From NCBI GenBank assembly GCA_017387505.1, contig JAFOFB010000015.1:163469-227468 (forward strand): a stretch of DNA of 64,000 bases, written 5' to 3'. A model generated the notes under the pieces. It was not told the DNA's origin and did not search any database. It was given only the letters and a program-made list of their open reading frames with translations. Source of the stretch: Methanocorpusculum sp. (GTDB taxonomy: Archaea; Halobacteriota; Methanomicrobia; Methanomicrobiales; Methanocorpusculaceae). This document shows positions 56,511 through 59,603 of this stretch, in pieces. The first letter of the stretch is position 1. The number at the start of each line of letters is the position of its first letter. The position numbers and the translations under genes were made by a program.

Positions 56511-56612
56511 GAGGTAATATTGGTTTTTTCAGGTAGTAATTACTTTGGGTGGGGATGAAGATTTTTGTCTTTGACCGTGTGGTTAATTATTCTGCAAAAC
56601 ATATTATCAAAA

Positions 56613-58070
56613 ATGGAAAATGTACATCCGACAGATAAAGCGCTGAAGCTGATTATTCTCTCAGCTGCTCTTGCTGCATTTATGTCGTCTTTGGATGGGA
56701 CAATTGTAAATATTGCTCTTCCAACGATTTCAGATATATTTGACCTGCCAAGTTCTTCGGTATCATGGGTCTCTACTATCTATCTTCTTGTGATGGCAGG
56801 CTCTCTTTTGATTGTTGGGAAACTTACCGACAGTATTGGATACCGGAAGATATTCCTGGCAGGTTTTGTCCTTTTTACGTTTGGCTCTTTTGCCTGCGGT
56901 TTCTTCCCTGAGATTACAGGTTCATTCGGTCTGCTTCTCTTATCCCGCGTAGTTCAGGCGCTTGGAGGTGTCATGATGACAATTATAGGTCCTGCGATGC
57001 TTACCAGATATATGCCTGGTGTTCAGCGCGCAAAGGGTTTGTCGATTGTTATTCTTTTTGCGTCTATAGGTATGGCTCTTGGTCCGACTCTTGGCGGTCT
57101 CTTAACTGAGTATTTTTCATGGAACTGGATTTTCTACATCAATGTCCCGGTTGGAATTGCCACTCTCATTCTTGGAATCTTTGTTCTTCCAAAGGACAAC
57201 ACCAAGCCGTTTACCCTCAAAGGTTTTGATGTTGCAGGAGCTGTTCTTATTTTTGCAGGTCTTGCTTTCCTGCTTTATGCCTTCTCCGAAGGATATAATC
57301 TTGGATGGACTTCCGTTCCGATTCTCGCATGTCTTGTGCTTGCAGTTGCATGTATTGCAGGTTTTCTCTGGCGCGAGACGCACTGTACCTCTCCGATTCT
57401 TGAGCTTAGTCTTTTCAGGAACAAGTCCTTTCTCCTGTTGAATCTCGTACTTTGTCTGATGTACTTTACTCTTGCAGGCGCGCAGTATCTTCTCCCGTTC
57501 TATCTTCAGCTCATTAAACAGCTTTCAACTTTTGAGTCAGGTCTTGTGCTGACAGTTATGTCTCTTGGCATGATGGCGTCAGGAATTCTCGCCGGACAGA
57601 TTTATGCGAAGTTGGTTGGTAAAATCAGAATTATGCTTTTGATTGGAATTGGTGCTATAGTATGCGGTTTCTTCCTTCTCTCAAAGCTCAGTCCGGTGTC
57701 AGGACTTGGAATTGTTGCCCTCGGTCTTGTTCTGATTGGTTTTGGTTTGGGCTTTGTCACAACTCCGGCTTCAACTCTTCTTCAGGGCTCGATTCATCCT
57801 GAAAAGAGTGGTATGGTTTCGAGTATTACAAGCCTTGAGCGCTATGCTCCTATGACTATAGGTATCGCTTTCTTCAATACGATGATTATCGTTGGTGTCA
57901 AAGCGATTGCAAAGCATACTGATATCACAACAGGTCCGATGCAGGACGTTGCGGCAAATATTCTGACGTCCGGTTTTGATCTTTGCTTCTTTATATCTAT
58001 GGGAATAGCTGTTCTGGCGTTTGTGATTTGTCTGTTTGTGAAGGAAAGCCGGTTAAAACCGGATGCATAA
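56613..58070 (+). CDS. MFS transporter, DHA2 family (EmrB/QacA-like, 14 helices)
   Basis: 485 aa from the ATG at 56613; a TTG 16 codons earlier is less likely. About 14 membrane helices with the drug:H+ antiporter motifs: LAAFMSSLDGTIVNIALPTI in helix 1 (motif D1), GKLTDSIGYRKIF (motif A, between helices 2 and 3), GPTLGGLLTEYFSWNWIFYINVPVG (motif C/antiporter region). Such proteins export drugs, lipids or small metabolites. Isolated, no regulator adjacent. A seven-T run follows the stop. This family is frequent in gut bacteria and could have been acquired. Confidence 0.9.
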   Translation: MENVHPTDKALKLIILSAALAAFMSSLDGTIVNIALPTISDIFDLPSSSVSWVSTIYLLVMAGSLLIVGKLTDSIGYRKIFLAGFVLFTFGSFACGFFPEITGSFGLLLLSRVVQALGGVMMTIIGPAMLTRYMPGVQRAKGLSIVILFASIGMALGPTLGGLLTEYFSWNWIFYINVPVGIATLILGIFVLPKDNTKPFTLKGFDVAGAVLIFAGLAFLLYAFSEGYNLGWTSVPILACLVLAVACIAGFLWRETHCTSPILELSLFRNKSFLLLNLVLCLMYFTLAGAQYLLPFYLQLIKQLSTFESGLVLTVMSLGMMASGILAGQIYAKLVGKIRIMLLIGIGAIVCGFFLLSKLSPVSGLGIVALGLVLIGFGLGFVTTPASTLLQGSIHPEKSGMVSSITSLERYAPMTIGIAFFNTMIIVGVKAIAKHTDITTGPMQDVAANILTSGFDLCFFISMGIAVLAFVICLFVKESRLKPDA

Positions 58071-58095: not shown

Positions 58096-58275
58096 CCCGC
58101 CGAGCCGCTTGGCTAATCGCCGCGGCTTTTTCGGCGGGTAATCAGGGGAGGAGGGTTGGGAGGCTTCTATCAGTTCTGGTTTTTTAGGTTGATGCTCTTT
58201 TGCGTGTGTTTCCGTCGGGCTAAGAAAATACGACTGCTCCTTCGTCTTCGGCTCATCCCAACTAATCGTTGGGAT
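58096..58275 (+). repeat. Structured 180-nt element, left copy (inverted pair)
   Basis: It starts with a strong hairpin, CCCGCCGA (58096-58103) against TCGGCGGG (58131-58138), with an inner GCCGC/GCGGC stem. After 70 nt comes TTTCCGTCGGGCTA (58209-58222), then after 32 nt a second hairpin ATCCCAAC (58255-58262) / GTTGGGAT (58268-58275). The same order occurs inverted at 58553-58372. No protein frame explains it. The 504-nt gap between the MFS gene and the lipase gene is otherwise empty. Confidence 0.7.
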
Positions 58276-58371
58276 TTCGCCTGCATACTCGGCGCACTCG
58301 CCTGTGCCCCGCACATTTTTTTGTAAATTAAGGAGGGCATGAGCAAAAAGACAGACGCGCCGACGTCCGCA

Positions 58372-58553
58372 GAAATCGAAACGCGGTAAGCGTTGAGATT
58401 TCGATGACTAAGGAACGGCTTGTATTTTTGTAGCCCGACGGAAAAACAGCAAAAGAGCAGACACCGACTAAACTACAAAAAAGAAAACCCGCAACAAAAA
58501 TATATTTTTCCCGCCGCGAAAAGCCGCCGCGGTTAGCGAGCGGCAGCGGCGGG
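58372..58553 (-). repeat. Structured 182-nt element, right copy (inverted pair)
   Basis: Read on the minus strand it repeats the left copy: hairpin CCCGCCGC/GCGGCGGG with inner GCCGC/GCGGC (58553-58510), the exact 14-nt motif TTTCCGTCGGGCTA (58444-58431), then a hairpin with 13-nt arms (58402-58390, 58384-58372) holding an internal GA/GA mismatch. Element length is 182 nt against 180. The hairpin stems keep their position but differ in sequence from the left copy, as for covarying structures. The 96-nt centre (58276-58371) has no gene except a 16-codon ATG frame. Confidence 0.7.
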
Positions 58554-58574: not shown

Positions 58575-59603
58575 TCACACCAAATCCACAATCTCGCCAC
58601 GAAGACACTGACCAATCCATTTTAAAGCATCAGGATGCCTCAAAAGACTTGCGTGGTGAAGCGGAAACACCTTAACCCGCAGATACGGCAGCTTTAAAAT
58701 CTCCCCGCCCATCGTTGACGAAAAACACGTAACAAGACCGTCTCCTTTGTTACTCTCTGATTTTATCATCTGACCCGGCTTATCGGAAAGACCAACAGAC
58801 TGCAAAGTTGACTTCTTAGTACCAAGTCCAAAGAAACAATCCTCCTTCTCCAGAAGAAGAGAATAACCCTTTCTTACATAACTCTGAAACACCCGCCCGT
58901 CTGCATAAGTATCTGGTGCCAGACTGCATAAGAAATCCTCCATATCACCAACAGACATAGGAACACCGAACTTAACCAAAGGACTTGCCTCAAGATGGCG
59001 CACACTAGGCATAAGCTCTGCAAGGCTCTGGAAACCTCTTAAAATATCGCGTGTGATACCAACAGTATCTGCAACAGCATTTGGAACCATAATGATATCC
59101 CCTGTCATGTACGTATTGATAATCTCGTATGAACCCTCAAACGGAACCCCGAGCATAACAACCTTTCCAAGACGATCTGTACCATACTTCGCAGCATAGG
59201 CAGACGTTACAAGACCTCCCATACTGTGACAGACAATATTTACTAAAGAATGCCCTTCTGAAACGAGTTCTTCAATCTGCTTATTCAGATGCTCTGCATT
59301 ATCCCTGCACGACTTCCTGAAATCATAAGAGAAAAAGTACACAGGAGAATCAGGCATAGTACGGCACACCCACTCAACAAGGAAAACATCCTGCTTTAAA
59401 ACACCGTACTCCTTTTCAAGAAGCGAAACATTTTGAAGATTCACCCCATTATTCTTCACGCTAAGCTCGGACTGAATATCAAGCCTCTTTGCATCAGTAA
59501 GAACCGCTGGGGCTGAGAACCAGAGCTTCTTACCATCCTCCGGGAGATAAAGCTGGCTTCCAAGAATGCCCGGAATATAAATGACAGGAGAGCCGCGTGA
59601 CAT
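58575..59603 (-). CDS. LCAT-like alpha/beta-hydrolase (lipase/acyltransferase)
   Basis: 342 aa. The fold is LCAT family: PVIYIPGILGSQLYLP at the N-terminus (oxyanion region), VYFFSYDFRKS (the YDWR-like motif), CHSMGGLVTSAYA with the nucleophile Ser, SNKGDGLVTCFS with the catalytic Asp and LHHASLL with the His. No signal peptide, so likely cytoplasmic. LCAT enzymes act on ester phospholipids, which archaea lack, so the substrate is unclear: host or bacterial lipid, acylated metabolite or a borrowed bacterial enzyme. Its promoter has a TTTTATAAATAAC box about 20 nt upstream of the ATG. Confidence 0.85.
   Translation of the reverse strand: MSRGSPVIYIPGILGSQLYLPEDGKKLWFSAPAVLTDAKRLDIQSELSVKNNGVNLQNVSLLEKEYGVLKQDVFLVEWVCRTMPDSPVYFFSYDFRKSCRDNAEHLNKQIEELVSEGHSLVNIVCHSMGGLVTSAYAAKYGTDRLGKVVMLGVPFEGSYEIINTYMTGDIIMVPNAVADTVGITRDILRGFQSLAELMPSVRHLEASPLVKFGVPMSVGDMEDFLCSLAPDTYADGRVFQSYVRKGYSLLLEKEDCFFGLGTKKSTLQSVGLSDKPGQMIKSESNKGDGLVTCFSSTMGGEILKLPYLRVKVFPLHHASLLRHPDALKWIGQCLRGEIVDLV

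What the first reader, a model, noticed from the sequence alone, without database searches (positions are those of the whole stretch)
58096..58553. Two inverted, structured 180-nt elements with conserved layout and differing stems
Both copies have hairpin A (CCCGCC.../...GGCGGG with inner GCCGC/GCGGC), about 68 nt, the identical 14-mer TTTCCGTCGGGCTA, about 30 nt, and hairpin B. Lengths are 180 and 182 nt. Hairpin B differs in sequence but keeps a stem, which points to selection on structure. This could be a novel RNA family, the ends of a mobile element with long inverted repeats, or a chromosomal structural site. No protein explains it.
Basis: seen in the sequence. Interest (0 to 1): 0.7.

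Follow-up and report, generated by a model that had tools for sequence, protein, structure and literature searches.

The report
Collapsed ends of archaeal defence-gene cassette
The two inverted elements are the left-over ends of an apparently undescribed mobile cassette in Methanocorpusculum archaea, in which two different nuclease-plus-hairpin modules face each other and usually enclose restriction-modification (anti-virus) genes.

Summary
Each ~180-nt copy is the 5' part of a ~0.9-kb repeated module: a bulged terminal hairpin, a linker, the 14-mer, a variable hairpin, a ~115-nt structured domain with strong compensatory changes, then a gene for a GxxExxY (PDDEXK_3, Cas4/lambda-exonuclease-like) protein under purifying selection.

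The structured domain was found in only five Methanocorpusculum species among 232 genomes of the class. Modules come in convergent pairs: all 16 pairs read are heterotypic (A-like with B, or A2 with A'), and 12 of the 16 enclose restriction-type genes. The same host locus carries different cargo in different species, and the same cargo sits at different loci. No Y1 transposase was detected in the genus.

The window pair (58096-58553, between convergent MFS and lipase genes) is A/A'. Its nuclease genes, structured domains and any cargo are missing, and the copies join at a 6-bp microhomology. A sister species has only one hairpin there.

Stems vary almost only by Watson-Crick swaps (G-U pairs are rare), which fits selected DNA hairpins at least as well as an RNA. 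Mobilisation by the paired nucleases is inferred, not shown.

The parts
58096..58304 (+). Copy 1: 5' part of a type A module
   Evidence: Best blastn match is an A module (82% over 168 nt); alignment with full modules
58096..58138 (+). Terminal hairpin of copy 1 (loop CTAATCG, ~5-nt bulge on the 3' side), followed by TAATCAGGGGAGG
58209..58222 (+). 14-mer TTTCCGTCGGGCTA, copy 1
58255..58275 (+). Hairpin B of copy 1 (ATCCCAAC/GTTGGGAT)
58299..58553 (-). Copy 2: 5' part of a type A' module, including the first 14 nt of the structured domain (GCGGGGCACAGGCG)
   Evidence: Best blastn matches are A' modules L170 and L094 (86-87% over 216 columns)
58510..58553 (-). Terminal hairpin of copy 2 (loop CTAACCG)
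58431..58444 (-). 14-mer, copy 2
58372..58402 (-). Hairpin B of copy 2
58299..58304 (.). CGCCTG, microhomology at the junction of the two copies
   Evidence: Read against full modules
56565..58070 (+). Host gene on the left: MFS transporter, outside the pair, stop 25 nt before copy 1
   Evidence: PF07690 E=2.5e-55; present in G018, absent between lipase and rpiA in G002
58575..59603 (-). Host gene on the right: LCAT/lipase-like alpha/beta hydrolase, outside the pair, stop 21 nt from copy 2
   Evidence: PF02450 E=2.3e-8

Best explanation
The window site is the collapsed remnant of a two-ended mobile cassette. Intact, the cassette is [terminal hairpin - 14-mer region - hairpin B - structured domain - GxxExxY gene] > cargo < [a second, different module of the same architecture]; the cargo is mostly one restriction-type system. 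Shown: module architecture, convergent heterotypic pairing, restriction cargo, presence/absence and cargo differences between relatives, selection on stems and on the protein. Inferred: the two sister nucleases act together, perhaps as a heterodimer, on hairpins extruded at the element ends to cut or join DNA and so move or swap the cassette. Inferred too: in the window the inner part was lost by deletion at a 6-bp microhomology, leaving the two outer ends.
For: Full modules and gene. Convergent pairs, 16 read in full, all with the two members in different tree groups. Restriction-type cargo in 12 of 16. Same locus with different cargo, and same cargo at different loci. Empty alaS site in four species. 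Window copies are A and A', the types that pair in L094 and L101 being A2 and A'. An orthologous site is a collapsed A/A' pair in G018 and an A module with a broken gene in G000. Sister species has a single hairpin at the window locus. No Y1 transposase in the genus. Purifying selection on the protein.
Against: No target duplication, excision product or circular form seen. No direct evidence that GxxExxY proteins mobilise DNA; the fold match is only to the superfamily (E about 1e-3). Cargo swapping could be homologous recombination between modules. The window pair has never been seen with its genes at this locus. Solo A' modules exist (G018 C3, G002 C17). The genomes are drafts that break at these repeats.
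Confidence: 0.6

Rival explanations
1. The modules do not transpose. They are homology blocks on both sides of variable defence loci, and cargo is exchanged by ordinary homologous recombination; the GxxExxY genes are selfish or regulatory passengers.
For: At the metG locus the host flank is 87% identical between G009 and G018 while the A-gene region is 98.5% identical and the cargo differs.
Against: The same DpnI cargo with its modules lies at three unrelated loci, and the alaS site is empty in four species, so new sites are occupied. Recombination does not explain why pairs are always heterotypic.
Confidence: 0.2
2. The modules work like IscB with its omega RNA: the structured region 5' of the gene is a non-coding RNA that the GxxExxY nuclease binds, perhaps as a guide.
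For: Strong covariation in the domain just upstream of the gene, low folding energies, and the same domain core before a third, diverged GxxExxY type.
Against: G-U pairs are rare: 6 one-sided cells of 1004, 2.9% of pairs against 10.6% in folds of shuffled sequence. No Rfam relative. No guide region identified and no expression data.
Confidence: 0.2
3. The short gene-less A/A' pairs are a functional unit of their own, for example a non-autonomous mini-element or a two-way transcription barrier between convergent genes.
For: Three such pairs (window; L104 in G018; L041 in G010), all A/A' by sequence; the window and L104 pairs lie between convergent genes. Their terminal hairpins are intact.
Against: The junctions differ (CGCCTG; AAAAACA), so there is no fixed inner structure. 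At the L104 site G000 still has an A module with a broken gene, which points to decay. Only three cases.
Confidence: 0.15

Closest known systems
Composite transposons and mobile defence islands
   Same: Two modules flank cargo, often restriction-modification, with variable presence between relatives.
   Different: No transposase; the two modules are different types rather than copies of one insertion sequence; ends are structured hairpins rather than short exact terminal repeats.
IS200/IS605 elements, REP sequences and RAYT transposases
   Same: Bulged hairpins at element ends that could act as single-stranded DNA; short motif next to the hairpin (CAATC in type A).
   Different: No Y1 transposase detected in 16 genomes of the genus, including the own one.
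IscB with omega RNA (HEARO)
   Same: Structured region directly 5' of a small nuclease gene.
   Different: Different nuclease superfamily (PD-(D/E)XK), paired heterotypic modules around cargo, stems nearly free of G-U; no Rfam match.
Integron attC sites
   Same: Hairpins with conserved layout and bulge but variable stems (comparison from general knowledge).
   Different: No integron integrase seen; cassettes here carry nuclease genes at both ends.
GxxExxY protein family (TIGR04256, PF13366)
   Same: The module genes are clear members.
   Different: In 30 sampled loci from other organisms three have a second copy and none is convergent; the structured domain did not match the 24 of them that were searched.

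Membership tests
GxxExxY / PDDEXK_3 proteins | Profile score above the curated cut-off | tested here: met
   132.6 bits against 35 (TIGR04256); 131 against 22 (PF13366)
GxxExxY / PDDEXK_3 proteins | Conserved D..ExK nuclease residues | tested here: met
   D70, E80, K82 invariant in alignment A2
GxxExxY / PDDEXK_3 proteins | Nuclease activity | not testable with these tools
   Fold matches only at superfamily level
IS200/IS605 or REP/RAYT | Y1 (HUH) transposase | tested here: not met
   PF01797 absent from 16 genomes of the genus; present in other genera of the order and in controls
IS200/IS605 or REP/RAYT | Subterminal hairpins | tested here: met
   Bulged terminal hairpins in A and B modules
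Composite transposon | Two copies of one insertion sequence with a transposase | tested here: not met
   Modules are heterotypic; no transposase among the scanned cargo or module genes
Composite transposon | Target-site duplication | tested here: inconclusive
   Empty alaS site is too diverged to place the boundary
IscB/omega RNA-like system | IscB or TnpB nuclease | tested here: not met
   The only profile hits of the module gene are GxxExxY and PDDEXK_3
IscB/omega RNA-like system | Expressed structured RNA with a guide | not testable with these tools
   Covariation is strong, but G-U pairs are rare
Known RNA family | Match to an Rfam model | tested here: not met
   No element match in the window, ten module loci, or at E up to 5 on one full module
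Integron cassette array | Integron integrase and array of cassettes | not tested
   No dedicated search; none seen in the cargo scanned

The most novel reading that the evidence does not exclude
A previously undescribed class of mobile element: two sister PD-(D/E)XK (GxxExxY) nucleases, one at each end, recognise hairpins formed by the element's own ends and together move or swap defence cassettes without a transposase, integrase or reverse transcriptase.
Probability: 0.35. Interest if true: 0.9.

Novelty: categorically new. Interest (0 to 1): 0.72.

Why it matters
GxxExxY is a widespread protein family for which I found no functional study in the open library searched. Here it sits in a constant arrangement with structure-conserved ends and restriction cargo, which makes its role testable. 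If the mechanism holds, it is a new route by which prokaryotes exchange defence genes. The stems also offer a clean case for asking whether selection on structure acts on DNA or on RNA.

Tried and rejected
(1) Known RNA family: no Rfam match. (2) Terminal hairpin as a pre-existing target site, suggested by the single hairpin in G018: rejected as the default, because the empty alaS sites have no such hairpin and the script found no other hairpin with a CTAATCG loop in the window; the G018 hairpin is better read as a scar. (3) IS200/IS605-type mobilisation: no Y1 transposase in the genus. (4) Pairing as a general GxxExxY feature: not seen in 30 loci from other organisms. (5) A wider home for the structured domain: no match in other genera of the class (that search used strict filters); no relative of the protein in viral contigs at that sensitivity. 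(6) MFS gene as cargo: it lies outside the pair. (7) A rule 'downstream of a gene, same strand', suggested by the first sites: not universal, since at L087 the left module follows a gene start.

Full report
WHAT IS THERE. The two inverted elements exist as described (repeats). Their shared 14-mer occurs 12 times in the 1.425-Mb draft genome and never in the reversed control; blastn with copy 1 finds 23 places. Reading the copies in register shows that the window copies are the 5' part of a longer module: terminal hairpin, linker, GATGCTCTTTT or similar, TTTCCGTCGGGCTA, variable hairpin B, CTGCGGACT..GGCGCACTCGCC, ACGCCCTCCTTAATA, a ~115-nt structured domain starting GGCGGGGCACAGGCG, then, usually 20-30 nt later, a ~125-codon gene. 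In L010 and L011 the similarity between copies ends at the gene's stop codon.

THE GENE. It is a GxxExxY protein (TIGR04256, E=8e-39; PF13366 PDDEXK_3, E=3e-38), with 18 tblastn places in the own genome. Both main types keep the D..ExK residues; median dN/dS is 0.15 for A-like genes and 0.10 for B. The AlphaFold model has pLDDT 84; the nearest solved folds are SSO0001, a Cas4 protein, and lambda exonuclease, at E about 1e-3 and TM about 0.5-0.6. That supports the superfamily, not a function. One paper reports a GxxExxY call next to a CRISPR-type reverse transcriptase where another program saw cas4 (PMC8934634).

PAIRS AND CARGO. In five species the genes come in convergent pairs. Sixteen pairs were read in full: L086, L087, L088, L090-L096 and L098-L103. 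A tree puts the two members of each pair in different groups: A, or the A-like gene L008 (the left gene of L087), with B in 14 pairs, and A2 with A' in two (L094, L101). B (100/100) and A (100/99) are firm clades; A2 (96/92) and A' (95/88) less so. I fetched these loci because they looked paired, so the fair statement rests: among genes of these types, every one with a second such gene within 10 kb faces it. The exceptions lie at contig ends, are solo A' copies (G018 C3, G002 C17) or a solo A 1.3 kb from a contig end (G000 C9), or have a decayed or missing partner (G000 C22, C3). Random pairing of 14 A-like with 14 B genes would give only mixed pairs with p=4e-4, and 16 convergent pairs with 2e-10, if the pairs are independent events, which related genomes are not fully. 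Cargo of 12 of the 16 is restriction-type: type I (L087 with Abi_alpha; L096, judged from its layout without a profile scan), MmeI type IIG (L088 by Pfam and PADLOC; L092 and L100 by similarity to it), DpnI/Dam-replacing (L086 by Pfam; L091 and L099 by similarity), C5-methylase (L093, L095), HSDR_N (L094), GmrSD (L101). L089, with a decayed A end, carries a full type I system. L090, L098, L102 and L103 have no recognised restriction gene.

MOVEMENT. The same host locus holds different cargo in sister species: beside metG (my reading of the gene) G009 and G018 have unlike cargo, with the host flank 87% and the A-gene region 98.5% identical; L089 and L092 share both flanks but not cargo. The DpnI cargo, 90-96% identical, sits at three loci. 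At alaS, G000 carries A-DpnI-B and G035 carries A and B ends, while G002, G034, G036 and G006 have at most about 110 bp there and no such hairpin. The structured domain was found in 5 of 232 genomes of the class, all in the own genus. Named records place these genomes in Methanocorpusculum, several from ruminant guts.

THE WINDOW SITE. Copy 1 is closest to type A and copy 2 to type A'. They join at CGCCTG, shared by both arms (58299-58304), so the structured domains, genes and any cargo are missing. In sister species G018 (MFS 91%, lipase 87% amino-acid identity) the same place has one hairpin with the A loop, which I read as a further-decayed scar. A second locus is informative: in G018 it is a collapsed A/A' pair (L104), and in G000 the same site still has an A module with a broken GxxExxY gene (L006). 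Collapse is therefore the most economical reading; that the window once held both genes is inferred.

RNA OR DNA? Thirty-five structured domains pair in 94% of cells, with 107 double changes and covariation 0.302 against 0.110 for shuffles and 0.08 or less when slid; five single sequences fold 4.7-6.2 sd below shuffles. But one-sided G-U changes are almost absent (6 cells, all at one pair), and G-U makes up 2.9% of pairs in the domain and 1.4% in B hairpins, and 2 of 310 pairs in A hairpins, against 10.6% in folds of mononucleotide-shuffled domains. Stems change while staying Watson-Crick. This fits selected DNA palindromes or hairpins, or conversion between arms, at least as well as RNA. Terminal hairpins of both kinds share a layout: lower stem, bulge of about 5 nt on the 3' side, variable upper stem, near-constant loop.

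LIMITS. The genomes are drafts that break at these repeats; no target duplication or excision product was seen; there are no expression data; the literature searched was open-access only, so an existing description elsewhere cannot be excluded. 'Categorically new' rates the distance from known kinds on this evidence; the nuclease-driven mobility mechanism itself is put at 0.35.

Noticed in passing
L086 and L006 (between structured domain and gene), L007/L088 and L012 (in terminal hairpin), L011:2220-2380, L090:2160-2326: Short palindromes (for example GGCGAGGGAGCGAAGCGACTAAGCC) are inserted inside the loops of other hairpins, giving nested hairpins; possibly very small mobile palindromes.
   Followed up: partly
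L086, L092 and L099, just after the B gene: A hairpin of A type followed by GCAATCATGGGG also stands directly behind the B gene, inside the cassette, so the hairpin-CAATC unit may itself be a dispersed repeat.
   Followed up: no
L175:4008-4092, L070:1894-1966 (-), L178:9769-9861: A third, diverged GxxExxY type is preceded by the core of the same structured domain (E 5e-7 to 1e-3); L178 has a weaker second match 3.3 kb upstream.
   Followed up: partly
window 58321-58338 and most A modules: The conserved ACGCCCTCCTTAATA resembles the 3' end of 16S rRNA; its complement looks like a ribosome-binding site with a start codon, followed by very short reading frames.
   Followed up: no
L162, L166, L172: Contigs with these modules are filed under a Bacteroidaceae genome (RGIG9419, yak cecum); contamination from Methanocorpusculum is more likely than transfer.
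   Followed up: no
L147 (G018 C2, behind alaS): A different ~2.6-kb stretch of sequence lies at the alaS site in G018, without A or B modules in the match list, so the site may be a general hotspot.
   Followed up: no
window 56565-58070: The MFS gene is missing between lipase and rpiA in G002 but present in G000 and G018, so this intergenic region is variable apart from the element pair.
   Followed up: no
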